In this document: positions 287 to 47,572 of the stretch, in pieces
Numbering within the stretch: the stretch's first letter is position 1
How the letters are laid out: every line of letters starts with the position of its first letter
From: a virus
Virus record (IMG/VR): IMGVR_UViG_3300029267_001061
Span: 1-64,000 of that record
Length of the DNA: 64,000 bases
Strand: one strand, 5' to 3'
Made by a program: the position numbers and the translations under genes
Notes under the pieces: model-generated
Database searches by the model: none
The model's input: only the letters and a program-made list of their open reading frames with translations
What the model was told of the DNA's origin: nothing

Positions 287-1684
287 ATGGGAGAAGCCAG
301 AAGTTCTGTTGACATTATCCTAGACGCAGCGGGCGGTATGCAGCAGCCTACTTTGAAGTCAAGCGGTCTAACCAAGGGCGGTCTCGGCGACGCACTCGCA
401 GGACAGCGAGCAGTAAGTGCGCGGGAGATCGAGCAGAAGGAAGCTCGAGACATCTACGAGGGCACTTGGCTCGGGCGAAACTCGGTCGACATCCTGGCGG
501 GCGATATGACTCGTGCAGGGTTCACCGTCGAGATCTCTTCCAACCAGAAGTTAGCCGACTTGGTCAACAAGAAGCTGCGCAAGCTGAAGCTGAAGTTGCG
601 TCTACGCGATATGATCGTGAATGGCCTGATTGATGGGATGGGTTACCTGTCGATCGGATTCAAAGAAGGCCGGTCCATGCAGTTGTGGAGAGAGCCGGAC
701 AAAGTGGAGGACATCCAGTACATCCACGCCTTCACTGACGACGATGTAGACGAGATCGAGCTCAACGAGGACCCGTTCAGCACGGACTTCGGAGAGATCC
801 AGTACTACCACGTATACACGGGCTCAGGCGATACAACTAATAAGGTGCATGGCGACCGAGTCATGCTCTTCCGCCCGTTCCCCCGACACGGCTTTGTACA
901 CGGCAGCTCCATGTACAAGTGGTTGCTCCCCATCATTCAGATCGTGGACAACGCGCAGTGGAGTTTCGGACAGGTCGTGTATCAGCTCGTGTTCAAAGTG
1001 CTCAAGGTCGACATGGACCGATTCACCGCAAAGGCCCTGGAGAAGGGTGTTTCCGAACGTGAGCTCATGAACGCGTTGGCTGACGACATCAATGCACTGA
1101 CCGTCTACGTGATGGACAAGGGAGACGGTGACGAGGGCGAACCGCCTGACACGATCGAGTTCCCTTCGATGTCCGGTTCACTCGGCTCAGTGAAAGATCT
1201 CATCGAGTTCGTCTGGCAATTGGCTTCGGCTGCGACGCGGATGCCCCGATCACACCTCATCGGTAACGAGCAAGGCAAGCTGACCGGTGCAGAGTGGGAT
1301 ACGAGGACCTACTACGCTCGGGTCTCCGGTTTGCAGGAAGAGCACTTGCTGCCGAAGATTGAAGACATCGTGGACCATCTCCTACGGATCGAGGGCAAGG
1401 ATCCGGAAGAGGTTGACTACGAGGTCAAGTTCAATCCGCTGTTCCAGTTGGATGAGAAGACACAGGCTGAAGTTGACAAGCAGCGAGCTGAGACCGACGG
1501 GCTCTACATCGACCGCAATGTCGTTAGCGGCAATGAGGTTCGAGAGCAGAGATTCGGGCTCAAGCCAATGGCTGCCTTGCCTCCTGTGGAGGAAGATGAT
1601 GATGACGACGAGTTCCCGGTTGAAGAGCCTGAGGACGAGGATGTCATCGGCGAGAATGAGGAAGAGCGGGAAGAAGACGAATGA
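287..1684 (+). CDS. Portal protein (DUF1073-type)
   Basis: A 465-residue protein that should form the dodecameric ring at the DNA-entry vertex and dock the terminase. Visible features fitting the DUF1073 portal family are the N-terminal RNSVDILAGDMTRAGF and the middle segment RDMIVNGLIDGMGY. A later segment SAATRMPRSHLIGNEQGKLT is also typical, and is followed by a long helix with YYARVSGLQEEHLLPKI. The last 35 residues are almost all Asp/Glu. The start ATG has a GGAGGTG site 9 bases upstream. The gene lies between the terminase end and the MuF gene, the standard order, and overlaps the next gene by four bases (ATGA). Confidence 0.88.
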   Translation: MGEARSSVDIILDAAGGMQQPTLKSSGLTKGGLGDALAGQRAVSAREIEQKEARDIYEGTWLGRNSVDILAGDMTRAGFTVEISSNQKLADLVNKKLRKLKLKLRLRDMIVNGLIDGMGYLSIGFKEGRSMQLWREPDKVEDIQYIHAFTDDDVDEIELNEDPFSTDFGEIQYYHVYTGSGDTTNKVHGDRVMLFRPFPRHGFVHGSSMYKWLLPIIQIVDNAQWSFGQVVYQLVFKVLKVDMDRFTAKALEKGVSERELMNALADDINALTVYVMDKGDGDEGEPPDTIEFPSMSGSLGSVKDLIEFVWQLASAATRMPRSHLIGNEQGKLTGAEWDTRTYYARVSGLQEEHLLPKIEDIVDHLLRIEGKDPEEVDYEVKFNPLFQLDEKTQAEVDKQRAETDGLYIDRNVVSGNEVREQRFGLKPMAALPPVEEDDDDDEFPVEEPEDEDVIGENEEEREEDE

Positions 1685-4600
1685 AGTTCCCATCCGCAGT
1701 CTCACACGACTACGAGCTACTCCTGAAGGGCTCTGTAATCCCGAGAGTGATGGAGCGGGTTCGAAAGCACTGGCCTCAAGTAGCCAAACTACTTGAACAG
1801 AATCACCAACTACACGAAGGACTATCCTCTGAGGCCGTGACCGACGAATCCGCTCCCCGCCTTGACCTGGATCTCAGCAAAGAGATCCAGAAGGTGCTTG
1901 AGGGAATGAAGCTCGATGTTACCACACAGGCCATCTCCAACGCGGAAGCTGACCGGATGGCCAAGAGCTTCGTGGGGCTCGTGAATCAACGCGTCAACCA
2001 AGATCTGAGTGCTCTCACCAAGCGAAAGTTCATGCAGGGCATCGACGTCCTTGGACTCAGCACCGCAACGGGTCGGGAGCTTACACAGTCCACCCTCTCT
2101 GCTGCAGTGGGTACAAACGTAAGCCTGATCAGGGATCTACCGGTGCGGGGCCAGAAGAAAGTCACAGACATTGTGATGAAAGGCTTCGCTTCGGGCGAAA
2201 GCACCAAGGCGATTGAAGCCCAGCTTTCGGGTGTGGAAGAATTGCTGGGAAAGGACATCGAGCGAATCGCGGTAGACCAGACAGGCAAGATATACGGCGA
2301 TGTGAACAAGATCCGGCAAACCGACGCCGGCTTGAAGACGTACGTCTGGAGTGATGCCGGCGATGGTAGAGTCCGAAATAAGCACAAAGCGTTGGATGGC
2401 CGAGTATTCACATGGGAGAAGGGGGCGCTGAACGGCCTCCACCCCGGTCGGGACTACAGATGCCGCTGTGTAGCGGAGCCGAATCCGGACGAGATTGCCG
2501 ACTTCGGGCGAAGTAAGGACGGCAAGAAGGTGCCGATCCCGGGCGGCAAGAAGCGGAAGAAGAAACCCGTGCCGCAGAAGGGAACACTCGTCAACGAGCT
2601 GGAGGCAATGGGCTTCAGTCCAGCGTTCCCCGATTCACTGCAGGGGCGGAAGGATACACAGCTCTTCCTGGAAGTCTTACGAGACCTGAAGAAGCAGGGG
2701 TACTCGAATACCGACAAGGACGTCATCTTCAAGCTGTTCCAGCCCGAGAAGGCTGTTGAACAGTGGGGTTTCTACTACAACGACGGAAAGACCCGCATGC
2801 TCTCGCTATCCCTGGGCAGGGCCCAGAGAGAATCGGCGAAGGCGATGTTCAAATCAGAGGTGCACGAGATCGCAACGAACAACCGCTGGTGGAACGCCAG
2901 TTCGAAGCTCGACAAGAACTCGGTTGACCACATGCGGTCGATTCTCCGCCATGAGATGGGCCACCACATCACGCACGATCCGCAAATCAAGATGGCGTGG
3001 AGAGATGCGATCATTGAGCTCGCTGGCCCTGACGAGGACAAGATCCGAACATGGGTTCAGCGCAACATCGGGCACTACGCCGCTACCAACGACAATGAGT
3101 GTATGGCCGAGGCCTTCTCACTCTTCACGCACCCCCGATACAAGAAGGGGATGCTGCCCGACTCACTAGAAGACATTCTCCGTAAGGCGAAGACGCCGAA
3201 GAAGGCCAAGAAGAAGCCCACACTGGACTTCCAGAAGATGTACATCCAGGGCGATCTCACTAAGGCCCAGGAGAAGACCCTGCGGCACTGGGTTGTAGAC
3301 GGTCAGGACATGAGGAAGACGTACCGGGGCCTCCGAGTGGAGACGGATAACGCCAGGCGGGCTCTACTGAAAGAGCAGCTGGATGAACTCGAGAAGCTGA
3401 TGGATAACTCCCCCGAATTCGAGGGCACTGTATGGAGAGGTTGGGATGACCTGCCCGAAGACGTCTTCCAGAAGCTGTACAACTCAGACGTGTTCGAGCT
3501 GGATGCCCCCACGTCCTCCACCCTCAACCTGGAGGTCGCGGATCGCTTCATCGACGAGCACTCTCCGACCTCGATCATTATGGAGATGAAGACGAAGCAC
3601 GGTACCCGCATCCCCGACTTCGACCCCGGCCCCCACACATTGAATCAAGAGGAAATCCTGTTGAGGCCCGGAGCCAAGTACCGTGTAGTGGAGCGAGGCC
3701 ACAAGGAGCTGTGGGGCCAACAGGTGCCATACCTGAAAGTGGAGGAAGTCACCGATACCTCGAACTACATGTCCTTCGCCAAGAAGCCGCCTGCTGAGTG
3801 GGCCGCATCCCTGAGTGATGATGAACAGGCTGTAATCCGGGCCTGGTCTAGGAATGACTACAGGGAGATTCGCCGATGGCAGGCCAAGGGGATACGGCCT
3901 GGAGTGAAGCCCCACATTGCGGGGAAGACCTGGGAGATAGAAGAAGTATCCGACATGCTGGAAGCGGCAGTCGATAGGTGTGAACCCTGGAAGGGCAAGG
4001 TATACCGGGGGATCGGCACTGATGACCCCAAGATGCTACAGCGACTCACCAATGGGAAGGTGTTGGAGTGGGATGCGCTGACCAGTGCGTCGAAGTCCAG
4101 GATGGATGGAATCGAGTTCACCTCCCAGTGGGGCCTGAAGAAGAGGCAGATCCTGTTCGAGATTGATCAGGTCTCTGGTGTGGATATCAACCCCGGGCTC
4201 AAGGGGCTAACTGCTCTAGACGAAGCTGAAGTCCTGATGAAGCGGGGCGTCAAGTACCAAGTCGTTGGCAAGCCGAAGAAAGAAACGATCTACGTGCCCA
4301 AGCTCCAGAGACATGACGATATCTGGGTTGTCAAACTCAAGGAGCTGCCTGCAGATTCGCCGATGGGCCAACGATCCTGGGTGTCTACACTCGATGCCCG
4401 AGAACGTGGGGCTCTCCGCAGGATCCAGGAAGGCCGGGTAGTACCAGACGATATGAAGGATGCCTACGAGGCAGCGATCAAACGAGCCCCCACCTTCGAG
4501 GGAGACGTCAATGAGGTAGTCCTGCTCAGCAAGAAGAAGCTCGCTCGGCTAGAGGCAGCTGACTTCATCGACATCGACCAACCGAAGGGCGGAATCATCC

Positions 4601-7569
4601 GCAGCGTCGACATTGGGGATCTGCCCTCGGGAGATGCGAACCACAAAGCAGCCATCATCCGCTACCAGACGAAGAGCGGCATCGACTTGGGTACAGGCGA
4701 TACTGATGCCATCATCAGGAAGGGCGGGCGCTACCAACTGGTCGAGGTCAACCAGAAGAAGTTCAAGAAGCGCCAGGTTGCGGAGTTCGTCTTCCGTGAA
4801 GTCGATCCTTCCGATCCAGCGGTAGGGGCCAAGAAGGCTGCCCGCCAGAAGCTGGCCACTGCGACAACCCCAAGTCCTACGGGCACTAAGCCGCCCATGA
4901 CATTCCACGAAGCCATTGCTACTCCGCCGAAGGCAAAGGTGAAGAGCTCACAGGCAGCTGTGAAGCGGAATTTCAAGGACTACATGGACAACCAGGGCGG
5001 GAAGCAGTGGAAGGAGAGTCTTGACAAGCCACACCAGGATGCTGTGAAGGGATGGCTCTCGGATACGAGGGGTGACGGCACCAGGGGAATCGGCTACATG
5101 GAGATCCGCTCGCTACAGAAGGGGCGGCTAACCGATGTCAGTGACGAGGTTGTTGAGAAGACGAAGAAAGCACTCCGCCAACTGGATGAGGCCCTGGAGT
5201 CTGCCCCTCGCCATGAGGGCACCGTGTACCGCGGCCTACAGATCGACCAGAAGCGGTATGATGACCTGATCAGGCAGACAGCGGTGGAGTTCGATGCTCA
5301 CGCCTCAACTACTCCGGACGACTTCATGGGCTTCAAGTTCGCCACTGAGCGATCCATCCAGGACCTCGACCGAGAGATGTCTGTGGTTATGGAGATTCGT
5401 GGAGTTGAAGGCGCGAAGGTCGGCTGGTATGCGAAGCTCGGCGAGACAGAGGTCGTTCTACCTAAGGGCACTAGGCTGAGACGCGTAGGGGAACCCATCA
5501 TCGAGACCTACAAGCCCAGGAACGGGGTTTCATCGAAGACCATTACCCGCCTGGTGTTTGAGCCGGTAGCAGATGAGGTCGAGTGGAAGAAGCTCACTGC
5601 GATGAAGAGCCCTATGGACAGTAAGACCCAACTGGCTTCCGCTCGGTACCGCTACATCAATGCCCAGGATACCCTTGAACGACTGGAACCGCAGAGGCCG
5701 CGATCACTGAAGGCTCTGGAAGAGGCAAGAGCTGCCGAACCGGGCAGTTGGCACGCCAAGCAGCTTGAGCGGTACGAACTACACTTGAAGCAGATAGATG
5801 AAGCAATCGCCAGAGCCCGCAAGGATGTCGCAACAGCAGATGACGACATCAAGCGGATCCTGAAGACGTGGGATCCCGGTACACCGCCCGCAGTACGGGA
5901 AGCTGTAGAGGAAGCAGTAGAACGAGTCGTCACAACGACGCCGAAGCCAGCGCCGGCGATCGAGGTCATCCCCGAGAATCCTAAGCTCACGGCTCTTCGC
6001 AAGAAGCTGTCCTCAGCAGAGGAGGCCTTGGAGGCGTCGACCGACCCGGATGAGCAAAAGAAGCTGAAGCGCCGGATCCGCAAGTACAAGAGGGAGATCG
6101 CAGCAGAACAGCCGGCCAGCCCTGTAACCAGCGCCCCTTCTACTCCTGCTCCGAAGCCCCAACCCCAGGTTACACCCACAGAAACGCCAACCATCATTGC
6201 CGAAAACCCGAAGGTCACGGCATTGAAGGCGAAGATCGCGGAGGCTGAAGAGATCGCGGGGTCGATCGCCGATCCTGACGAGAAGAAGAAGATCAAGCGA
6301 AAGATCCGGAAATACAAGCGAGACCTGAAGGCGCTTGAAGAGGTACCTGATACGCCGGCGGTCACTACGCCAGGCAAGCTCAAGCTGGGCAAGACGATTG
6401 AGGAACTCGAGGGACAGCTAGAAACCTTCACCGATCCGGATGACCAGAAGAAGATCAAGCGCAAGTTGAGGAAGCTGAAGCGTGAAACGCCTTCGGTGCC
6501 CACTCCCAAACCGGCGCCAGTGGTAACGAGCCCGACTCCAGCACCTGCTCCGGGGCCATTCAAGTTGGGAACAACCATCGAGGAGTTGGAGCAGCAGCTG
6601 AAGGACTATACAGACCCCGAACAACAGAAGAAGATCAAGCGTAAGCTTCGAAAGCTGAAGAGAGCCGGCGGTACGGCCACACCGACAAAGAAACCGACCG
6701 TGACCCAGGCCCCCGAGGCTCCGAAGCCGACCGCGAGAAGAGAAGACCTGCAGTGCAAGTTGGAATCCGTCAAGGATGGCGACCTGCTCTGGGGTGAAGA
6801 GGAAGCGATCGACAGCGCCTGGAACTACACTGGTGTTCAGACCCAGGTCAAACAGAAGCTGACCGAGGATGTCCGGGGCGGCATCAATCCTCCGGGCTCA
6901 CTGCGGAAGGTCACTGACAGAGTCACGTTCCGTGACATGCAGCTTCCCAAGAAGAAGTTCGATGTGGAGATGGTTCAGGCTCAGGTCGACGACATGGCTC
7001 GGGTCATGGACCAGCTGGATCCGGATTACGTGCCCACCAAGAAGATGCGCGGTATCCGATTCCGGAACGAGATCCAGGATGACGGCATCTACCAGGGCAC
7101 ATGGGGTCGATACACATACACCATGAAGCAGGGGGATTGGATGGGGCCGAAGGTTCCGAAAGAGATGGCCCTTACCGCATCCCACAAGCCTTACCAGACG
7201 GGCCTTATGCGGAGCAAGAAGCACCTGAAGGTGGGGAGATCGCCAGCTACACGATCCTTCGTGCGTGACCATGCTTGCTCAGGGCTGGACGGTACATACG
7301 CCGAGATCGGCGCCAGCACGGCAAGGCACGAGCTTGGCCACCACATCTGGTTCAGCATGTCTCCCGGTAAGCAGCAGGAGTTTCGTAGAATATTCCGAAA
7401 GCTCGAGGATGAGAGGAAGGTGAACAGTGTGCTAGGCTACTACGGCGGAACCAACGTGGAGGAAGGATTCGCGGAAGCGTTCTCCCTCTTCACACACAAG
7501 CGGTATCGCCGAGGCGGCGCACTGGGAGCAGAACTCGAAGCTTGCATGGGGAGGTTGTTCCGACGATGA
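1681..7569 (+). CDS. Giant MuF head protein with two HExxH domains and four ADP-ribosyltransferase-like units
   Basis: At 1962 residues this is the largest gene in the window. Residues about 110-275 form a MuF-type head domain ending in YRCRC (C261, C263). Residues 424-428 are HEMGH with E473/E477 downstream, a zinc metallopeptidase signature. Four units of about 180 residues follow (515-692, 703-887, 898-1045, 1108-1297) with ADP-ribosyltransferase signatures. Unit 1 has R586, TSST 611-614 and Q656-x-E658; unit 2 has R776, TSAS 801-804 and E848-x-E850; unit 4 has R1184, STT 1209-1211 and E1255-x-E1257; unit 3 lacks the arginine and has D1007-x-D1009. Four basic helical repeats (1432-1472, 1508-1548, 1565-1602, 1625-1665) are separated by Pro/Thr-rich linkers. 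A second HExxH (HELGH 1883-1887, E1928/E1932) ends the protein, and both peptidase units share AEAFSLFTH. MuF proteins sit inside the head; fused effectors are known from prophage MuF toxins and phage T4 injects the ART Alt. I infer delivery into the host with the DNA. Confidence 0.85.
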   Translation: MKFPSAVSHDYELLLKGSVIPRVMERVRKHWPQVAKLLEQNHQLHEGLSSEAVTDESAPRLDLDLSKEIQKVLEGMKLDVTTQAISNAEADRMAKSFVGLVNQRVNQDLSALTKRKFMQGIDVLGLSTATGRELTQSTLSAAVGTNVSLIRDLPVRGQKKVTDIVMKGFASGESTKAIEAQLSGVEELLGKDIERIAVDQTGKIYGDVNKIRQTDAGLKTYVWSDAGDGRVRNKHKALDGRVFTWEKGALNGLHPGRDYRCRCVAEPNPDEIADFGRSKDGKKVPIPGGKKRKKKPVPQKGTLVNELEAMGFSPAFPDSLQGRKDTQLFLEVLRDLKKQGYSNTDKDVIFKLFQPEKAVEQWGFYYNDGKTRMLSLSLGRAQRESAKAMFKSEVHEIATNNRWWNASSKLDKNSVDHMRSILRHEMGHHITHDPQIKMAWRDAIIELAGPDEDKIRTWVQRNIGHYAATNDNECMAEAFSLFTHPRYKKGMLPDSLEDILRKAKTPKKAKKKPTLDFQKMYIQGDLTKAQEKTLRHWVVDGQDMRKTYRGLRVETDNARRALLKEQLDELEKLMDNSPEFEGTVWRGWDDLPEDVFQKLYNSDVFELDAPTSSTLNLEVADRFIDEHSPTSIIMEMKTKHGTRIPDFDPGPHTLNQEEILLRPGAKYRVVERGHKELWGQQVPYLKVEEVTDTSNYMSFAKKPPAEWAASLSDDEQAVIRAWSRNDYREIRRWQAKGIRPGVKPHIAGKTWEIEEVSDMLEAAVDRCEPWKGKVYRGIGTDDPKMLQRLTNGKVLEWDALTSASKSRMDGIEFTSQWGLKKRQILFEIDQVSGVDINPGLKGLTALDEAEVLMKRGVKYQVVGKPKKETIYVPKLQRHDDIWVVKLKELPADSPMGQRSWVSTLDARERGALRRIQEGRVVPDDMKDAYEAAIKRAPTFEGDVNEVVLLSKKKLARLEAADFIDIDQPKGGIIRSVDIGDLPSGDANHKAAIIRYQTKSGIDLGTGDTDAIIRKGGRYQLVEVNQKKFKKRQVAEFVFREVDPSDPAVGAKKAARQKLATATTPSPTGTKPPMTFHEAIATPPKAKVKSSQAAVKRNFKDYMDNQGGKQWKESLDKPHQDAVKGWLSDTRGDGTRGIGYMEIRSLQKGRLTDVSDEVVEKTKKALRQLDEALESAPRHEGTVYRGLQIDQKRYDDLIRQTAVEFDAHASTTPDDFMGFKFATERSIQDLDREMSVVMEIRGVEGAKVGWYAKLGETEVVLPKGTRLRRVGEPIIETYKPRNGVSSKTITRLVFEPVADEVEWKKLTAMKSPMDSKTQLASARYRYINAQDTLERLEPQRPRSLKALEEARAAEPGSWHAKQLERYELHLKQIDEAIARARKDVATADDDIKRILKTWDPGTPPAVREAVEEAVERVVTTTPKPAPAIEVIPENPKLTALRKKLSSAEEALEASTDPDEQKKLKRRIRKYKREIAAEQPASPVTSAPSTPAPKPQPQVTPTETPTIIAENPKVTALKAKIAEAEEIAGSIADPDEKKKIKRKIRKYKRDLKALEEVPDTPAVTTPGKLKLGKTIEELEGQLETFTDPDDQKKIKRKLRKLKRETPSVPTPKPAPVVTSPTPAPAPGPFKLGTTIEELEQQLKDYTDPEQQKKIKRKLRKLKRAGGTATPTKKPTVTQAPEAPKPTARREDLQCKLESVKDGDLLWGEEEAIDSAWNYTGVQTQVKQKLTEDVRGGINPPGSLRKVTDRVTFRDMQLPKKKFDVEMVQAQVDDMARVMDQLDPDYVPTKKMRGIRFRNEIQDDGIYQGTWGRYTYTMKQGDWMGPKVPKEMALTASHKPYQTGLMRSKKHLKVGRSPATRSFVRDHACSGLDGTYAEIGASTARHELGHHIWFSMSPGKQQEFRRIFRKLEDERKVNSVLGYYGGTNVEEGFAEAFSLFTHKRYRRGGALGAELEACMGRLFRR

Positions 7570-7766
7570 CATCATTCGCGATTCCAGAAGAAGTGATGAA
7601 GGCGGCAGAGGCTGGGAAGTGGGTCTTCCGAGAACGCGTCCCTGAAGGACCATTGAAGCGCTTGCCCAAGTACTGGATCGGAGACGACCCGGACGAAGCG
7701 CCCCGAGATTACGTAGAATGGATTCGACCGGAGGACAACGATGACACAGAACCAGCTGCCCCCTGA
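7566..7766 (+). CDS. Small acidic protein, paralogue of the next gene
   Basis: A 66-residue protein of unknown function. I chose ATG 7566, which overlaps the previous stop (ATGA) and has GGGAGG about 11 bases upstream, over an earlier GTG/ATG in frame. The segment AGKWVFRERVP...KYWIGDDPDEAP recurs in altered form in the next gene (DGKWVFKETQP...EFWYGDDPVDAP), so the two look like a tandem duplication. No membrane segment or known domain is visible. Co-transcribed with the head genes. Confidence 0.7.
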   Translation: MTSFAIPEEVMKAAEAGKWVFRERVPEGPLKRLPKYWIGDDPDEAPRDYVEWIRPEDNDDTEPAAP

Positions 7767-7920
7767 GATCGTACAAGCGATCCGCGACGGGAAGTGGGTA
7801 TTCAAGGAGACCCAGCCTGAGAACCCCCACGATCCTGAGTTCTGGTATGGGGATGACCCGGTAGATGCACCGGATGGCTGGGAAGTGGCGTACGCGCCGA
7901 GGGAGGAGAAGAATGGCTGA
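7741..7920 (+). CDS. Small acidic protein, tandem paralogue
   Basis: A 59-residue protein (MTQNQLPPEIVQAIRDGKWV at its start) overlapping the previous gene by 26 bases and the next by 8. It shares the GKWVF core and the WYGDDP motif with its upstream neighbour. The ribosome site GACCGGAGGACAACG lies just before the ATG. Function unknown; the duplicated pair and overlap suggest that the two products act together. Confidence 0.7.
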   Translation: MTQNQLPPEIVQAIRDGKWVFKETQPENPHDPEFWYGDDPVDAPDGWEVAYAPREEKNG

Positions 7921-8167
7921 GCAGCAAACTGTATGCCCGATGGGGGTAGGACGGCAATGCCGAGGAGAAGACTGCGAGTGGTGGATTTCAAGGCAGACTC
8001 TTGAAGGAACCATCTTCGTGGATGGGAATCTGGAAGGGCCGCTTGTGAGTGGGGGCTGTTCGATGAAGGTGATGGCCCTCTACATGCCGCTTCTCATTCT
8101 TCGGGTTGGGGACATCTCCGGCGGCTTGGGGGGTATCATTAGCGCAGCAACGGAAGGGAGACCCTGA
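7913..8167 (+). CDS. Small cysteine-rich protein
   Basis: An 84-residue protein. ATG 7913 is preceded by GGGAGGAGAAG, whereas the in-frame upstream start has no such site. The N-terminus carries CPMGVGRQCRGEDCEWW, a cysteine cluster that could bind a metal or form disulfides, with a fourth cysteine near residue 50. The C-terminal half is hydrophobic and glycine-rich (LYMPLLILRVGDISGGLGG). Function unknown. Confidence 0.65.
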   Translation: MAEQQTVCPMGVGRQCRGEDCEWWISRQTLEGTIFVDGNLEGPLVSGGCSMKVMALYMPLLILRVGDISGGLGGIISAATEGRP

Positions 8168-8412
8168 TGCCTAAGACGAAAGATGCGGATCGTGCGGAAC
8201 GCTTCGTGGACACGGACCTGAGCTTCATCTCACTGGGTGGAGCCGAGTGCCACAAGTGCAAGCACCTGAACGAAGAGACGAATGACGACGGGGAGGAGAC
8301 CTGCAAAGCCTTCCCTGCCGGGATCCCGGATGACATCATCATCGGCGATACCCTACACCGCGTCCCTGTGGATGGGGACAACGGAATCACGTTCGAGCCA
8401 AGAGATGAATAA
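8167..8412 (+). CDS. Small protein with CxxC-H-C motif
   Basis: An 81-residue protein with the pattern ECHKCKHLNEE...CKAFPAGIPDDII, which I have seen as a recurring small phage and bacterial family whose function I cannot name. The Cys-x2-Cys-x-His plus later Cys could bind zinc. The start ATG overlaps the last base of the previous stop (TGATG). This is the last gene before a strong terminator, so it ends the first transcription block. Confidence 0.7.
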   Translation: MPKTKDADRAERFVDTDLSFISLGGAECHKCKHLNEETNDDGEETCKAFPAGIPDDIIIGDTLHRVPVDGDNGITFEPRDE

Positions 8413-8441
8413 CTAGCACGTCTGTTTCTCTCCTTGTGTTC

Positions 8442-8485
8442 GCGCCCCCCGCGCTTCGGCAACGGGGGCGCCTCTTTGTTTCGTC
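8442..8485 (+). terminator. Rho-independent terminator
   Basis: GCGCCCCC (8442-8449) pairs with GGGGGCGC (8464-8471) around a 14-base loop and is followed by CTCTTTGTTT. It separates the portal/MuF block from the following cassette of exported proteins. Confidence 0.85.
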
Positions 8486-8503
8486 GTAGAAAACTCCGAG
8501 CAG

Positions 8504-8531
8504 TTGAGACCGGCAACTTCATATCTATAAT
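8504..8531 (+). promoter_or_regulatory. Sigma70-like promoter
   Basis: TTGAGA (8504-8509) and a perfect TATAAT (8526-8531) are separated by 16 bases, directly after a terminator and 24 bases before the ATG of the next gene. One mismatch to the consensus -35 box. The layout indicates separate transcription of the 8.5-10.7 kb cassette. Confidence 0.75.
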
Positions 8532-8555
8532 AGCCCTCGAACGGAAGGAGGAGCC

Positions 8556-8837
8556 ATGAGGACGGTTGCATCAATTTCACAGCTAGCGCGTGCAGGGCTA
8601 TTTGCCCATGCAATTCGCAAGGCACAGATCGATGGAAATCACTTCAAGCAGGTTCCTTCGGAAGCATTCGATGACGAGGGCAACCTGGTGAAGTACGTCT
8701 ACGTGAAGTACCTAGGGAAGTTCTTCACGACTGGTCACGAGCGCGAAGATCAGAACGTGGAGTTCTGGCTGGCGGACTCAGCCGAGGTACAGCCTCCTGC
8801 TGGGTTCCAACTTCTGTACAGCCCCCGAACTTCGTAG
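8556..8837 (+). CDS. Hypothetical protein, first gene of promoter-driven cassette
   Basis: A 93-residue soluble-looking protein of unknown function. It starts at ATG 8556 behind GGAAGGAGGAGCC and follows the only strong promoter in the left part of the window. The middle is rich in aromatic and charged residues (YVYVKYLGKFFTTGHERED). No signal peptide, although the next three genes are membrane or exported proteins. Confidence 0.7.
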   Translation: MRTVASISQLARAGLFAHAIRKAQIDGNHFKQVPSEAFDDEGNLVKYVYVKYLGKFFTTGHEREDQNVEFWLADSAEVQPPAGFQLLYSPRTS

Positions 8838-8856
8838 GGCGTAGGAGGTGAATCCC

Positions 8857-9099
8857 GTGAAGAAAGCACTTCAACTACTCGGAACATTCGCTGGGACACT
8901 ACTCAGTCCCAAGAAGCAGCAAGAACAGGTGGGCGGCCGGCGCGTCTGGCTCGTCCTTGTACTACTCGCTGTTGCGTGGGGTATGCACGCGACCGGCGTA
9001 TCCGACGGCATCATCTTGGCCTGCATCGGTACCGCATCCACATTCGTGGTTGGGGAATCGGTCGGAGATGTCAAGGCACGGAAGAAAGACAGTCAGTAG
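8857..9099 (+). CDS. Small membrane protein (holin-like candidate)
   Basis: An 80-residue protein with two predicted membrane segments: one at WLVLVLLAVAWGMHATG and one at IILACIGTASTFVVG, followed by GESVGDVKARKKDSQ. I chose GTG 8857 because GGAGGTG lies 6 bases upstream; an in-frame GTG at 8848 sits inside that site. Two-helix proteins of this size can be holins, but many small phage membrane proteins look alike and a second holin-like gene lies at 40622. Confidence 0.65.
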   Translation: MKKALQLLGTFAGTLLSPKKQQEQVGGRRVWLVLVLLAVAWGMHATGVSDGIILACIGTASTFVVGESVGDVKARKKDSQ

Positions 9100-9114
9100 G
9101 AGGTGGAAAACACC

Positions 9115-10134
9115 GTGAAACAACGACTCGCATTAGCCATCCTCTTCGTGGGGATGTTCGTATGCCTTACTGGCTGCGAACTCTTCGACTTCTTGACACC
9201 GGATATGGCCCTTGAGGCCCACATCAGTGTCGGAGCGGCGTTGGTGACGGAAGTTGAAGTGGTGCCCAGTGTAGAAGCTGGGGGCTATCTCGTCGCTATC
9301 CGCATCAGGGGTGGCAATCAACGAGCAGGATACACCATCCAATGGGGTGACGGGCAATCCGCCAACATCCCCACACAGGATGAATCCCTATACACGGCCG
9401 TGTCGCACCTCTATGCAGTTGAGGGCGATTACGACATCTTGGTTACAAGCGGCAATGGGCATGCACCGGTCGAGCTGACCGTGCATTGCAAGGCTAGCGG
9501 TCTCGTGTATCGAGGCGCTTGGTTATCTCCGGTGCAGTTCAACTACCGCGATCTTCTTTCCATCGATTTCCGTCTACGGGATCGAGGATGTGATGGCGCT
9601 ACCGGGGAACCCCTCTACAGCTCTGGTGTCCTGAACCTGGACCCGGGTGTATGGGAACTCCGTATCACCATCGAAGATTCGACCGGTCCGTTCGCGATCT
9701 ACACTGGAGAATACGACCTGCACTCCGACGGCTCCCGTACATATAGGAATGTCGCCGGGGTATGGATCGAAGAACCCGAAGTCCTGTACTGCCTCATCGG
9801 CAACCGCAACGATCAGCCTTGGTATCCTCTGAACGCTCCCGCCAGTACAACTGGCTACGACTGGTTCGAGGATCTCATGGCTTCTGCGCTCGCAGGACTG
9901 GACAACGATGAAGGAGGTTTGCTCGGTGACGCATCCAGCGCTATCGAAGCGAAGGGTTGTCCGCCGATCCCGAATCCTACTCCTGTACCTGATCCTGAGC
10001 CGATTGAGCCAGGCACGGAAGGGTGTACAAGCGGGCGGCGATGGGTGAAGATGACGATTCAACTTCGCAACCAATGGACCAACGTGCTGACGTACGTGAG
10101 TACTTTCTGCGCGATGCCCAACGGTTGCCAATAA
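9115..10134 (+). CDS. Phage-encoded lipoprotein with PKD-like domain
   Basis: A 339-residue predicted lipoprotein. GTG 9115 has AGGAGGTGG upstream and opens a signal peptide ending in the lipobox LTGC (C21), so the mature protein would be lipid-anchored. A PKD/Ig-like beta domain follows, marked by W77-G-D-G80 and HLYAVEGDYDI about 25 residues later. The remainder looks beta-rich and contains a Pro-rich linker (PNPTPVPDPEPIEP). Lipoproteins from phages are often superinfection-exclusion or host-surface factors; virion use is less likely with a lipobox. It lies in a cassette with its own promoter next to another exported protein. Confidence 0.72.
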   Translation: MKQRLALAILFVGMFVCLTGCELFDFLTPDMALEAHISVGAALVTEVEVVPSVEAGGYLVAIRIRGGNQRAGYTIQWGDGQSANIPTQDESLYTAVSHLYAVEGDYDILVTSGNGHAPVELTVHCKASGLVYRGAWLSPVQFNYRDLLSIDFRLRDRGCDGATGEPLYSSGVLNLDPGVWELRITIEDSTGPFAIYTGEYDLHSDGSRTYRNVAGVWIEEPEVLYCLIGNRNDQPWYPLNAPASTTGYDWFEDLMASALAGLDNDEGGLLGDASSAIEAKGCPPIPNPTPVPDPEPIEPGTEGCTSGRRWVKMTIQLRNQWTNVLTYVSTFCAMPNGCQ

Positions 10135-10155
10135 CCCCATGGAGGTGGGGATATC

Positions 10156-10704
10156 ATGAAGAGAGCACTAGTACTTTCACTGGTCTGCATCATCGGCCTG
10201 GCCGCGATCGCTTTCGCCGGTCCGACTGTGCAGCTTCAGTCCCTGTGGTATGACGGCGATCAGCAGCTGGCCTTGGCGTTCGGGGGGAGCTACGTTCCGG
10301 ACAGAGCCTGGGGTGGCTTCGGTGAGTTCAAACTGGCTGAGTTCGAGTACGTTGGCGGCGATGGGGGGTTCCTGCACATTGAAGGTGTATGGGACTTCCA
10401 GGTGACCTACGACATCGACCTGTTCCAAGACGACGACGATGCCTACCTTACACTACGTCCCGGCTTCGGAATCATGTTGCCATCGGTCCTACACGTCGAA
10501 CAGAACATCTTCGATCCGCTCGTTGTCGAACCGGGCCTTGCCGTATCACTTGCGGTCATCACGGTCTACGACTTCCAGATCCGCGGAGAGATGTACTTCA
10601 ACGGTGATGCCGTCGGCTGGGCATTGGGCGGCGGGTTCGATTTCTTCGGACTCTCCGAACTCTTCCGTCGACCCGCTGAGCCGGTTGGAGACGAAGGCCT
10701 CTAG
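10156..10704 (+). CDS. Exported protein, possibly a small beta-barrel
   Basis: A 182-residue protein with a clear Sec signal peptide (MKRALVLSLVCIIGLAAIAF, cleavage expected after AFA). The mature part has alternating hydrophobic and polar residues and many aromatic and glycine residues (FGGSYVPDRAWGGFGEFKLAE, WALGGGFDFFGLSELF), as in small outer-membrane barrels. Membrane insertion is inference. A GGAGGTGGGGATATC site precedes the ATG. With the lipoprotein upstream it forms an exported pair that does not look like virion material. Confidence 0.65.
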   Translation: MKRALVLSLVCIIGLAAIAFAGPTVQLQSLWYDGDQQLALAFGGSYVPDRAWGGFGEFKLAEFEYVGGDGGFLHIEGVWDFQVTYDIDLFQDDDDAYLTLRPGFGIMLPSVLHVEQNIFDPLVVEPGLAVSLAVITVYDFQIRGEMYFNGDAVGWALGGGFDFFGLSELFRRPAEPVGDEGL

Positions 10705-10719: not shown

Positions 10720-12846
10720 ATGCCCTGGACTTCGGCAGACGCGAAGAAACACTCGAAGCTGGTGAAGAAGCCAGCTCACGCCGAGGCATGGGCGAAGGCT
10801 GCTAACCGGGCGCTCTCCAAAGCCAAGAAGGAGGGCGTCCGGGATCCTGAAGCTCGGGCCATCAAGATCGCGAACTCACTGTTGCGACAGATGGTGAAGA
10901 CCTCAAACGACTCGTTCATACCCGACGCGTCCGATGCGGTCTTCCGAGCGGATCAAGAACCACCCAAGACGCTGCTCGAAGGCCGAGGGGAAATCGTTAG
11001 CTTCGAGATTGATGAGAGCACCGGTATCCTTACCGCTGATGTCATCATTTCGCAAGAAGCGGTTCTCCCCTACATCGTGGACGGCAAGATCGTGCACGAA
11101 TACATCCCGGCAGCCGAGTTGTCAGACCAGGAGTTCTTGGATTCAATCCCCGGGAAGCCTGTCACAGACGGGCATCCAGCGGAGAAGCTGGTAACCTTCG
11201 ACTCATTGTCCCAGCACTCGAAGGGGGTACTACACGGGCCGTTCGAGACGTTCGTCGATGAAGACGGAGTCACGAAGGCAAGGGGTAAGGAGACCGTGTG
11301 GGACCCGGAACTCGTACAAGATATCGCCGACGGGAAGAAGCGCAGTGTCAGCATCGGCCGGTGGGCCCAGCTGATCCGAGAAGATGGGGAATGGAATGGC
11401 CAGTCCTATCAGCGACGCCAAGCCAAGCTGCGCTGCAACCACGTTGCACACACTGACTCGCCCCGCAACGAGGGTTGCCGCATTCTCGTCGACATGATGG
11501 ATCCAACGGATGCCTCGGTTTCTACGATTCGCGAGATGCCGTTGGCAGAACAGCCTCAGGCGCTGAAGGACCTGATCCAGAAGGTGAAGGGAGACCCTCG
11601 CGGACTGAGGAGTGTCTCGTACGCCGTCAAGGACTTGCGCCACTTGCTGAACGAGGCGATCAAAGTCATCGGAACAACCGACGGCGAAGCGAAGAAGACA
11701 CTGACTACAGCACTGGCCCAGGTGAAGGCCTGGTGGCCGGCGCTACATTGGAAGGGAGATGAGGAGTTCACGGAAGATGCGTGGACAGCGCCGACTGATC
11801 TCTCTGCTGAGGACTACGCGGAAGTAGTGCCTCCGGCAATCGCTGCTTGGATGGCAGATGAAGAATCTGCAGAGCCAGTGGCGATTGTACGGGCTACTCC
11901 CGACAGTCCGCTGAACTTGCATGCTCTGCGCGCATTGATCGGAGATGGAGCTCACTTCGACGGAGTACCGGACCACGTCATCCGGGAGACCCGAGAGTGG
12001 GCGCGGGAACAACTCACAACGTACCACATGCGAGGTGATTCAACGATGAGTGGAGCGACCAAGGTCGAAAAACTCCAGCTCACGCTCGGTGATCAGGTAC
12101 TGGAGTTCCCCGTGGACGAACTCGATGGGCTTGACCTGGATGAGTTCCGCACCACGCTCGGGGACTTTCAGAAGAAGATCGACGAGCAGGCCACCGAGCT
12201 TGGCGACCTGAAGGACAACGGAGATCCGAAGCCTGAGAAGAAAGAAGGCGAAGGAGATCCGAAGCCTGAGGACGACAAGTCCGGTGAAGGAGATGGCGAC
12301 GACGAGGAAGAGGATGAGGAAGAGGCAACTCCGACTGACTCCCTCCAGAAGATCGTCGATGCCGCTCAGAAGGAAATCGAACGCCTGAAGGCTCAGAAGG
12401 ACGGGAAGACCGACGAGATCGAAGCGCTTCAGAAGAAGCTCGACGAGTTCAAGAACGGTCTGCCGACCGCCGAAGCACAGGCACAGGCAGTGATGGACGA
12501 AGTGGAGACCAGGACTGGTCTTCTGCAGGCCATCGCTTTCTTCTCCGATGACTACAGCCAGAGCGGCAAGTCCACGGCCGAGATCAAGCGTGATCTCCTG
12601 TGCCTGGCCCGCCCAGACTCGGCGGAAGCCATCATGGAGCAGAACGAAGCTGGTGAGTTCGTCAAGAGCGACGCATACGTGGATGCACGTGTGGAAGTCG
12701 TCATTGACGACATCACCGAGCAGATTGGGGCCTCCGTTGGGAACAGCACGCTGAAGACCCGACAGGATGGCAAGGACGGAAACTCGAGCATCGCGAAACT
12801 CCGACAGGGGCGGCAGTCGATGTTCAAAGAGCCGGAGGTGACATAG
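10720..12846 (+). CDS. Prohead protease-scaffold fusion (DUF2213-type)
   Basis: A 708-residue protein. The first 60 residues (MPWTSADAKKHSKLV...ARAIKIANSLL) match the short N-terminal module common in phage head genes. Residues about 80-260 carry DUF2213-type protease features: PGKPVTDGHPAE, KKRSVSIGRWAQ and CNHVAHTDSPRNEG. A middle part with a cation/ChaB-like look (residues about 270-430) precedes a C-terminal, charged, coiled-coil-rich region with a Glu/Asp run (GDDEEEDEEEATP), typical of scaffolding. It probably cleaves itself and the scaffold during capsid maturation. The ATG follows AAAGGAGAAAC. See the internal start at 12046. Confidence 0.8.
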   Translation: MPWTSADAKKHSKLVKKPAHAEAWAKAANRALSKAKKEGVRDPEARAIKIANSLLRQMVKTSNDSFIPDASDAVFRADQEPPKTLLEGRGEIVSFEIDESTGILTADVIISQEAVLPYIVDGKIVHEYIPAAELSDQEFLDSIPGKPVTDGHPAEKLVTFDSLSQHSKGVLHGPFETFVDEDGVTKARGKETVWDPELVQDIADGKKRSVSIGRWAQLIREDGEWNGQSYQRRQAKLRCNHVAHTDSPRNEGCRILVDMMDPTDASVSTIREMPLAEQPQALKDLIQKVKGDPRGLRSVSYAVKDLRHLLNEAIKVIGTTDGEAKKTLTTALAQVKAWWPALHWKGDEEFTEDAWTAPTDLSAEDYAEVVPPAIAAWMADEESAEPVAIVRATPDSPLNLHALRALIGDGAHFDGVPDHVIRETREWAREQLTTYHMRGDSTMSGATKVEKLQLTLGDQVLEFPVDELDGLDLDEFRTTLGDFQKKIDEQATELGDLKDNGDPKPEKKEGEGDPKPEDDKSGEGDGDDEEEDEEEATPTDSLQKIVDAAQKEIERLKAQKDGKTDEIEALQKKLDEFKNGLPTAEAQAQAVMDEVETRTGLLQAIAFFSDDYSQSGKSTAEIKRDLLCLARPDSAEAIMEQNEAGEFVKSDAYVDARVEVVIDDITEQIGASVGNSTLKTRQDGKDGNSSIAKLRQGRQSMFKEPEVT
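12046..12846 (+). CDS. Possible internally initiated scaffold protein
   Basis: In-frame ATG at codon 443 of the protease gene, preceded by GCGAGGTGATTCAACG, a good ribosome site with normal spacing. The product would be the 266-residue C-terminal part: MSGATKVEKLQLTL, a charged low-complexity stretch and long helices. A scaffold made from an internal start inside the protease gene is known from lambda C/Nu3. The start is visible; its use is inference. Confidence 0.45.
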   Translation: MSGATKVEKLQLTLGDQVLEFPVDELDGLDLDEFRTTLGDFQKKIDEQATELGDLKDNGDPKPEKKEGEGDPKPEDDKSGEGDGDDEEEDEEEATPTDSLQKIVDAAQKEIERLKAQKDGKTDEIEALQKKLDEFKNGLPTAEAQAQAVMDEVETRTGLLQAIAFFSDDYSQSGKSTAEIKRDLLCLARPDSAEAIMEQNEAGEFVKSDAYVDARVEVVIDDITEQIGASVGNSTLKTRQDGKDGNSSIAKLRQGRQSMFKEPEVT

Positions 12847-33525: not shown

Positions 33526-34674
33526 ATGGCAGAGACAATGTGGTGGAGTGTGAATCGTTGGTACCCGCTCTGTCGCCCTGATGAGCTAGGGGGAACCGGG
33601 ACTGCTGCGCCGACTGAGGAATGCGCAGCCTTCGTGCACGGGGATGACATCTTCCTGTTCGCGAATCAGGCGGTCCGGATCAGGTTCCTCAATCGATCTT
33701 CGGGGTACCTCGGCAAAGGGTACTGCCATGAACGAGCAAACATGGCGCGCTCCGTGACTAGGGCGATGTTGCAGACCTTCCTTCGCACGGGGACGGATCA
33801 GATCTTCGTGATGGATGGGTACAACGGCTTGAGTAGGTACCAGTGGTACGACGTGAGCGCGAACACGTGGACAGCAGTGACCGACGTCCAGCCTCCGTCG
33901 AACATCTATGAGTCAGCTTGCCTCTACTTCCCATCCCTGGACAAGTGCTTCATGCCTGAGGGATCCGGGGACCGGAACGGATTCGTGGAGTTTGACCCCT
34001 CAGTGCCATCATGGACCGAGAAGACCGACATGCCGTTCGACGCCGCGTTCTTCTGCGCAGGGGTCATCGGCAGCAAGGCGTACATCGCAGATGGGGCCTA
34101 CCTTTACGATGACACGAATCGAACGTATGAGTATGACCCGGCATCCCACACGTTCACGGCGAAAGCAAACTGTCCAGACACCCATCAGCGGTGCACCGGC
34201 GCCGTCCTCGACGGAATCCTCTACAAGATGGGGGACAACATCAACAGCGAGCAGTGTCATCTCTCGGGGTACGATCCGGCGAGCAACACATGGACCTCGT
34301 ACCGAACGATAGCAACGGGCACTCGATACGGTGAGAATGGCTGTCCTCGGCTCCTTGCTCTGGAGAGCGCGGGGATGCTTGTCATGGTTGCCGCAGTGAC
34401 CGGCACTGGGAGCTACAACTTCCCGTGGTACGGGATCATGCCGAGAGGGGTCACGGTTTCCGGAACCCTCAAGAACAAGTCAGGTGGCAACGTCGATGGG
34501 GACCCCGTGATCGCCATTGGGCTAGAGCATCCTCAATTCGTCGGGGCCGCGGGGGAAGCTGGCAGCGGGACCTTCTCTCTTGAGGTGCCGGGACCCCAGT
34601 CTTCCGCGAAGCTGATCGGAATCATCGGGTGGCCAGAGAGCGATGCGGTCGCCGGAACAGTGAAGGTGGTGTGA
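33526..34674 (+). CDS. Kelch-type beta-propeller adhesin, copy 1
   Basis: A 382-residue protein with kelch-like repeats: YDVSANTWTAVTDVQPPSN, FDPSVPSWTEKTDMPF, YEYDPASHTFTAKANC and YDPASNTWTSYRTIA, each a Y/F-D-P...W-T unit with Gly-rich strands between. After the propeller (to about residue 325) a small Ig/regulatory-like domain begins at VTVSGTLKNKSGGNV. Propellers of this type in phage tails are probable receptor-binding modules. No signal peptide. A paralogue follows directly. Confidence 0.72.
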   Translation: MAETMWWSVNRWYPLCRPDELGGTGTAAPTEECAAFVHGDDIFLFANQAVRIRFLNRSSGYLGKGYCHERANMARSVTRAMLQTFLRTGTDQIFVMDGYNGLSRYQWYDVSANTWTAVTDVQPPSNIYESACLYFPSLDKCFMPEGSGDRNGFVEFDPSVPSWTEKTDMPFDAAFFCAGVIGSKAYIADGAYLYDDTNRTYEYDPASHTFTAKANCPDTHQRCTGAVLDGILYKMGDNINSEQCHLSGYDPASNTWTSYRTIATGTRYGENGCPRLLALESAGMLVMVAAVTGTGSYNFPWYGIMPRGVTVSGTLKNKSGGNVDGDPVIAIGLEHPQFVGAAGEAGSGTFSLEVPGPQSSAKLIGIIGWPESDAVAGTVKVV

Positions 34675-47145: not shown

Positions 47146-47572
47146 CCAGTACCACAACTCCTACCTGCCGAAGGACAGACTCCGTATGTTGTACGAGTGG
47201 GCCATTGTACTCGTAACGATAGACCAGCTTCTTGATGCCCGCAGCCATGAGAATCTTCGCGCAGTTCCAGCAAGGGAAGTGCGTGACGTAGATCGTGGCC
47301 CCCTCGGTTGCGATGCCATGGCGAGCAGCATGTGCGATCGCGTTCGTTTCCGCGTGGACCGTGCGGATGCAGTGGCCATCAACTTCATGGCATCCAACAT
47401 CCAAGCAATGGGGCATCCCGGACGGAGACCCGTTGTAGCCTGAAGAAACCATGTGCTTGTCCTTCACCAGGACGGCTCCAACGGATAACCGCTCACAGCT
47501 ACCCCGAAGGGCAACTGTGGCGGCGATATCCAGGTACATCTTAGTTCGCGAGATGCGACCGTTAGAAGACAT
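47105..47572 (-). CDS. dCMP deaminase
   Basis: A 155-residue protein of the deoxycytidylate deaminase family: H73-A-E75 and P100-C101-W-N-C104 are the zinc site and catalytic glutamate, and SVGAVLVKDKHMVSSGYNGSP is the typical N-terminal segment. It converts dCMP to dUMP, the substrate of the ThyA-type proteins encoded just upstream. I chose ATG 47572, overlapping the previous gene by 11 bases. The 3' end overlaps the polymerase start. Confidence 0.88.
   Translation of the reverse strand: MSSNGRISRTKMYLDIAATVALRGSCERLSVGAVLVKDKHMVSSGYNGSPSGMPHCLDVGCHEVDGHCIRTVHAETNAIAHAARHGIATEGATIYVTHFPCWNCAKILMAAGIKKLVYRYEYNGPLVQHTESVLRQVGVVVLDERQAQEEEEVEA

What the first reader, a model, noticed from the sequence alone, without database searches (positions are those of the whole stretch)
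1681..7569. A 1962-residue MuF head protein armed with two metallopeptidase-like domains and four ADP-ribosyltransferase-like units
MuF-effector fusions are known, and T4 carries Alt in the head, but one polypeptide with MuF, HExxH, four ART units, four basic repeats and a second HExxH is unusual. It may be a head-packaged multi-effector released into the cell with the DNA, possibly self-processed by its own protease domains.
Basis: partly seen in the sequence, partly recalled or inferred. Interest (0 to 1): 0.92.

Follow-up and report, generated by a model that had tools for sequence, protein, structure and literature searches.

The report
Phage head protein carrying stacked effector enzymes
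This is a very large bacteriophage head protein that probably enters the bacterium with the viral DNA, carrying three apparently working and one worn-out protein-modifying enzyme between two protein-cutting domains; proteins of this kind have been described before, but this exact combination is a new variant.

Summary
The observation largely holds. Window 1681-7569 is one uninterrupted 1962-aa ORF overlapping the portal gene's stop; a second contig carries it with one base changed. It reads MuF - zincin - ART1 - ART2 - ART3 (decayed) - ART4 - helical segment - four basic repeats - zincin. Profiles built only from other phages recover ART1, ART2, ART4 (1e-22 to 7e-30) and both zincins (about 1e-18); shuffled proteins reach at most 5 bits. 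The ART family matches Vis, XopAI and VIP2 (best 1.4e-12); the zincin family matches the lethal-factor zincin (7e-8).

Correction: unit 3 keeps the ART fold (AlphaFold2 pLDDT 93, best match Vis) but has lost all three R-S-E residues. Three ARTs look active, one dead.

This is a polyvalent protein of the MuF-effector type (PMC5512222, PMC9503650). MuF-ART, MuF-ART-ART, MuF-4xART, MuF-zincin and MuF-zincin-ART-ART occur in other phages with different portal families. What is new: an array of R-S-E (Alt/VIP2-type) ARTs in a true polyvalent protein, which the 2017 survey reported not to occur, set between two zincins. Head packaging, injection and self-processing are inferred, not shown. New variant of a known kind; interest 0.42.

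The parts
1681..7569 (+). whole 1962-aa polyvalent MuF protein
   Evidence: same ORF in L005
2155..2475 (+). MuF domain, residues 159-265 (phrog_324 head morphogenesis match spans 62-270)
   Evidence: PF04233 2e-14, TIGR01641 9.5e-18, phrog_324 1.5e-42
2506..2580 (+). basic, Pro/Gly/Lys-rich linker, residues 276-300 (net +10)
2839..3195 (+). zincin 1 core, residues 387-505; HEMGH 424-428, Y466, E473
   Evidence: profile from other phages 62.0 bits, 1e-18; motif spacing shared
3223..3750 (+). ART1, residues about 515-690; R586, S612, QEE 656-658
   Evidence: 74.5 bits, 1e-22 with profile from other phages; triad
3763..4359 (+). ART2, residues about 695-893; R776, S802, EAE 848-850
   Evidence: PF03496 3.4e-6; 97.8 bits, 7e-30; triad
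4366..4815 (+). ART3, decayed unit, residues about 896-1045; E945, G970, D1009 in place of R, S, E
   Evidence: hhalign 97%; AF2 pLDDT 93.1 and Foldseek best hit Vis 3.3e-7
4966..5571 (+). ART4, residues about 1096-1297; R1184, S1209, ETE 1255-1257
   Evidence: 75.3 bits, 6e-23; triad
5608..5880 (+). predicted helical / coiled-coil-like segment, residues about 1310-1400
   Evidence: weak FliJ match 0.0065, below cut-off; inference
5971..6105 (+). basic repeat 1, residues 1431-1475
6202..6348 (+). basic repeat 2, residues 1508-1556
6373..6498 (+). basic repeat 3, residues 1565-1606
6553..6675 (+). basic repeat 4, residues 1625-1665
7216..7566 (+). zincin 2 core, residues 1846-1962; HELGH 1883-1887, Y1921, E1928
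   Evidence: 59.6 bits, 5.5e-18 with profile from other phages; weak ATLF match 0.008
287..1684 (+). portal protein, directly upstream, overlapping by ATGA
   Evidence: PF06381 3.1e-63
10720..12846 (+). head maturation protease (DUF2213), alternative source of processing
   Evidence: PF09979 4e-17; phrog_530 4.6e-41

Best explanation
A virion-borne polyvalent effector of a contractile-tailed phage. The N-terminal MuF part binds the portal and places one or a few copies inside the head (inferred from MuF homology and gene position). The rest is packaged with the DNA and enters the host during ejection (inferred; the T4 Alt and MuF-toxin model). In the cell ART1, ART2 and ART4, each with an intact R-S-E site, move ADP-ribose from NAD+ onto host targets; ART2 and ART4 have the ExE form usual for arginine-specific enzymes and ART1 has QxE, so they may differ in target (general knowledge of ARTs, not tested). 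ART3 is a dead unit. The two lethal-factor-like zincins at either end of the effector region most likely cut the chain at its Pro/Lys-rich linkers to free the ARTs from the MuF anchor, before packaging, in the head or in the cell (inferred, about 0.45 within this model). The basic repeats may hold DNA or the capsid wall (guess).
For: MuF above curated cut-offs and in the portal-adjacent slot. Three ARTs and two zincins found by profiles that exclude the window. ART family matches Vis 1.4e-12 and VIP2; zincin family matches lethal-factor zincin 7e-8. R-S-E kept in ART1, 2, 4; HExGH + Y-x6-E kept in both zincins. Same gene slot carries MuF-ART, MuF-4xART, MuF-zincin and MuF-zincin-ART-ART in phages of at least five other portal families. 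Published: Alt/VIP2 ARTs fused to MuF in many phages (PMC9503650); MuF-ART Bxa is an active antibacterial ART (PMC11699363); zincin processing proposed for polyvalent proteins (PMC5512222).
Against: No direct evidence of packaging, injection, catalysis or cutting. The N4 virion RNA polymerase, which also has a zincin, is packaged uncut (PMC5512222). The zincin 2 model is poor outside the core and gave no significant fold match. Targets are unknown.
Confidence: 0.72

Rival explanations
1. The same delivered effector, but the zincins act on host proteins (for example defence or signalling proteins) rather than on the chain itself; the protein works uncut.
For: The zincin family profile is closest to the lethal-factor zincin, a protease that cuts other proteins; 20% of MuF toxins were reported to carry a metallopeptidase domain as the toxin (PMC5576092); MuF-zincin proteins with no further effector to release exist (L010, L013, L014).
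Against: Zincins at both ends of the effector region fit release of the middle part; Pro/Lys-rich linkers lie between the domains. PMC5512222 gives P1 DdrB as a processed precedent.
Confidence: 0.35
2. A large structural head protein in which the ART and zincin domains are relics, kept for bulk or spacing.
For: ART3 has lost all three catalytic residues; no close relatives are available to test selection.
Against: A 5.9-kb frame is fully open, and five other catalytic domains keep every expected active-site residue.
Confidence: 0.07
3. A MuF polymorphic toxin used by lysogens against competitors, with immunity genes next to it, rather than a host-takeover protein.
For: MuF toxins are reported mainly from temperate phages and often have adjacent immunity genes (PMC5576092, PMC11699363); several small unannotated ORFs follow the gene (7542-9099).
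Against: No integrase or resolvase, ADP-ribosylhydrolase or macro domain found in the phage's own record; it has its own polymerase, thymidylate synthase and primase-like genes, as in a virulent phage.
Confidence: 0.15

Closest known systems
Polyvalent proteins of phages and conjugative elements (Iyer et al. 2017, PMC5512222)
   Same: Large chain of biochemically unrelated domains encoded in a head module; zincins and ARTs are its commonest domains; more than one zincin and many ART copies per chain are on record.
   Different: Their ARTs are H-Y-D (Tox-ART-HYD2) and the survey says R-S-E Alt/VIP2 ARTs are not in genuine polyvalent proteins; here the ARTs are R-S-E.
MuF-ART fusions of the Alt/VIP2 family (PMC9503650) including Bxa (PMC11699363)
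   Same: MuF N-terminus, R-S-E ART C-terminal to it, portal-adjacent gene.
   Different: Here three intact plus one decayed ART, two zincins and basic repeats in one chain; Bxa is a prophage toxin with immunity genes, which were not found here.
L022 protein (1099 aa) and L025 protein (1227 aa), IMG/VR phages found here
   Same: L022: MuF-zincin-ART-ART in the same order; L025: MuF-ART x4; both directly after a portal gene.
   Different: No second zincin, no basic repeats of this type; different portal families.
Cyanophage PSS2 minor head protein (ACT65592.1)
   Same: MuF plus R-S-E-type ART in a 1499-aa chain.
   Different: Has a zeta-toxin kinase instead of zincins.
T4 Alt
   Same: Published head-packaged R-S-E ART injected with DNA; weak Alt-like profile matches here (2e-4).
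   Different: Free single-ART protein, not fused to MuF, no zincin.

Membership tests
MuF (PF04233 / TIGR01641) head proteins | MuF domain above curated cut-off | tested here: met
   54.7 bits against 29.6; 64.6 against 39.65
MuF (PF04233 / TIGR01641) head proteins | gene directly downstream of the portal gene | tested here: met
   portal 287-1684, overlapping start
MuF (PF04233 / TIGR01641) head proteins | protein present in the head, bound to the portal | not testable with these tools
   needs virion proteomics
Polyvalent protein (Iyer 2017) | several biochemically unrelated catalytic domains in one chain | tested here: met
   zincin x2, ART x3-4
Polyvalent protein (Iyer 2017) | encoded among virion or transfer genes | tested here: met
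Polyvalent protein (Iyer 2017) | ART domains of the H-Y-D (HYD2) clade (typical feature, not the definition) | tested here: not met
   ART1, 2, 4 carry R-S-E; family matches Vis/VIP2
Polyvalent protein (Iyer 2017) | transferred into the host with the DNA | not testable with these tools
   inferred from MuF and gene context
R-S-E ART (Alt/VIP2/Vis-like) | R, S(TS), (Q/E)xE catalytic positions | tested here: met
   met for ART1, ART2, ART4
R-S-E ART (Alt/VIP2/Vis-like) | same triad in ART3 | tested here: not met
   E945, G970, D1009
R-S-E ART (Alt/VIP2/Vis-like) | ART fold | tested here: met
   ART3 model: Foldseek to Vis 3.3e-7; ART1, 2, 4 by sequence profile only
Lethal-factor / PPEP-like zincin | HExxH and downstream Y/E helix with profile similarity | tested here: met
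   profile 7e-8; HExGH + Y-x6-E in both
Lethal-factor / PPEP-like zincin | matching three-dimensional fold | tested here: inconclusive
   core confident, rest poor; no significant fold match
MuF polymorphic toxin with immunity gene | temperate phage and adjacent immunity gene | tested here: inconclusive
   no integrase, resolvase, ADP-ribosylhydrolase or macro domain; a non-enzymatic immunity protein cannot be excluded

The most novel reading that the evidence does not exclude
A staged, multi-target injected effector: two self-cutting proteases at opposite ends release three ARTs with different target preference (one QxE, two ExE) plus a dead ART kept as scaffold, with the basic repeats tethering the chain to packaged DNA, in a virulent phage. 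R-S-E ART arrays behind MuF would then be a distinct branch of polyvalent proteins that arose several times.
Probability: 0.25. Interest if true: 0.65.

Novelty: new variant of a known kind. Interest (0 to 1): 0.42.

Why it matters
It extends the polyvalent-protein theme to arrays of R-S-E ARTs, the T4 Alt/VIP2 kind that the defining survey did not find there, and together with L019, L022 and L025 suggests that such arrays grew behind MuF more than once in phages with different portals. It makes two open questions directly testable: whether MuF-borne effectors really enter the cell, and whether their zincins cut the chain.

Tried and rejected
Single-sequence searches of isolate phages: for the ART region only PSS2 was convincing (2e-4); Lbo-JY12 was weak (0.4) but its ART is supported by profile; zincin searches gave nothing useful. 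phmmer of single regions against the PDB was too weak, so family profiles were used. A tandem-ART alignment for structure prediction slipped register and was dropped. Broad alignments A5 and A6 had no stretch fit for scanning. The genome scan gave one zincin in an apparently unrelated protein (L020). Terminase and portal scans found no close sister phage, so no within-lineage selection test was possible. The zincin tree is unreliable (long branches); zincin 1 scores best with L011's portal-fused copy and zincin 2 with L010's, so duplication within the gene versus two acquisitions is unresolved. A PF03496 search of the whole genome found nothing here or in the controls, so that answer is uninformative. 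Considered and rejected: assembly or frameshift artefact (same ORF in a second contig); chance HExxH motifs (profile test).

Full report
What is there. The ORF at 1681-7569 (+) is complete, 1962 codons, with its ATG overlapping the portal stop. A second IMG/VR contig (L005) carries the same ORF with one base different and joins the end of the window's record to its start, so the record is a nearly complete, circularly permuted genome of about 67 kb. The neighbourhood is a standard head module: terminase (on L005, phrog_38), portal (phrog_146), this gene, small ORFs, DUF2213 head protease, cement protein, major capsid protein, then the sheath, tape measure and baseplate of a contractile tail.

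MuF. Residues 159-267 match PF04233 and TIGR01641 above curated cut-offs, and 62-270 match phrog_324 (head morphogenesis) at 1.5e-42.

ART units. Pfam sees only unit 2 (3.4e-6). Motif-guided scans of IMG/VR brought in phages with related ARTs. A profile made from 20 ARTs of other phages and none from the window finds unit 1 (74.5 bits), unit 2 (97.8) and unit 4 (75.3), against a best of 5.1 bits in 200 shuffled proteins. The family profile, which includes the window's units, reaches the solved arginine ART Vis at 1.4e-12, and XopAI and VIP2 at about 4e-6. In a 22-unit alignment R, S and E are each kept in 21, and the exception each time is unit 3. Unit 3 is still an ART by descent: hhalign 97%, 0 of 1000 shuffles as good, and an AlphaFold2 model with mean pLDDT 93.1 whose best PDB match is Vis at 3.3e-7. 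That model used the family alignment, which favours the family fold, so it supports rather than proves the point. Result: four ART folds, three likely active, one dead.

Zincins. Both HExxH motifs sit in real domains: 62.0 and 59.6 bits with a profile from nine zincins of other phages only. All eleven copies share HExGH followed by Y/H-x6-E-x2-A. The family profile reaches the lethal-factor zincin at 7e-8, with Zmp1/PPEP weakly behind at 0.1-0.3. The model of zincin 2 is confident only in the core and gave no significant fold match, so the claim rests on sequence profiles and motif spacing.

Basic repeats. Four repeats at 1431-1665 are real and alike; the segment has net charge +17, and the repeats were not found in the relatives fetched. 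A DNA- or capsid-binding role is a guess.

Relatives. In other phages the gene after the portal encodes MuF-ART (L021, L023, L026, L035), MuF-ART-ART (L019), MuF-ART x4 (L025) or MuF-zincin-ART-ART (L022); L018 is MuF-ART; L010, L013, L014 and L011 have MuF-zincin, and in L011 the portal itself also ends in a zincin (the MuF assignment of L013, L018, L021 and L026 rests on reading the sequence and gene position, not on a Pfam scan). Their portals belong to several PHROG families (145, 12, 113, 10963, 64, against 146 here). On a tree, ARTs of one protein tend to group (five groups need 5 changes, the least possible is 4, shuffled mean 9.3), which suggests that arrays grew separately; but the window's units 1 and 3 do not join 2 and 4, and long branches limit this.

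What is known. Iyer et al. 2017 (PMC5512222) define polyvalent proteins: large chains of unrelated enzyme domains beside virion or transfer genes, about 36% with one to five zincins, ARTs in up to 12 copies, zincins thought to process the chain (P1 DdrB cut before packaging, N4 virion RNA polymerase packaged uncut). [quoted passage not shown] A 2022 survey (PMC9503650) reports many Alt/VIP2 ARTs fused to MuF and argues for head delivery. The MuF-ART Bxa is an active antibacterial ART (PMC11699363). Against this background the finding is a new variant: an R-S-E ART array and a zincin-flanked polyvalent plan in one MuF protein. I could not search all unpublished or subscription literature, so an earlier mention of the same combination cannot be excluded.

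Mechanism. Shown: the domains, their order, their active-site residues and their gene slot. Inferred: portal binding, packaging, ejection through the tail, ADP-ribosylation of host targets, and cutting by the zincins. The QxE of unit 1 against ExE of units 2 and 4 suggests, by general knowledge of ARTs, different acceptor preference. With no integrase or resolvase found and its own replication genes, the phage looks virulent, unlike the temperate phages in which MuF toxins were mainly reported (PMC5576092); this favours host takeover over competition between lysogens, but other routes to lysogeny were not tested.

Verdict. Interest 0.42.

Noticed in passing
L007:1454-5953 (Cyanophage PSS2, ACT65592.1): The annotated minor head protein is MuF + zeta-toxin kinase (9.8e-22) + ART by our profile: a second polyvalent design in an isolate phage.
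   Followed up: partly
L008:224-5341 (Leptolyngbya phage Lbo-JY12, XAI95080.1): A 1705-aa hypothetical protein of a cyanophage in Saffermanviridae carries a C-terminal ART (5.8e-9 by our profile) without a MuF match in Pfam.
   Followed up: partly
L034:4243-9080: Three consecutive ORFs each carry one ART behind a similar N-terminal part, one with an added GNAT-like domain: ART expansion as tandem genes instead of one chain.
   Followed up: partly
L011:6151-10033: The portal protein and the MuF protein of the same phage each end in a zincin of this family.
   Followed up: partly
L031:261-2813: A portal protein (PF06381, 6e-51) fused directly to a C-terminal ART.
   Followed up: no
window 44752-47157 (-): An uracil-DNA glycosylase domain is fused to a family A DNA polymerase (UDG 3.8e-32, DNA_pol_A 5e-100).
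   Followed up: no
window 9103-10704 (+): Within the head module, a 343-aa ORF with a lipoprotein-like start (LTGC) and weak PKD match, followed by a 182-aa ORF with a signal-peptide-like start.
   Followed up: no
window 33526-34674 (+): A Kelch-repeat-like 382-aa protein in the tail region.
   Followed up: no
window 1-64000 with L005: Contig L005 bridges the end and the start of the record, so the genome is circularly permuted and near complete at about 67 kb.
   Followed up: yes
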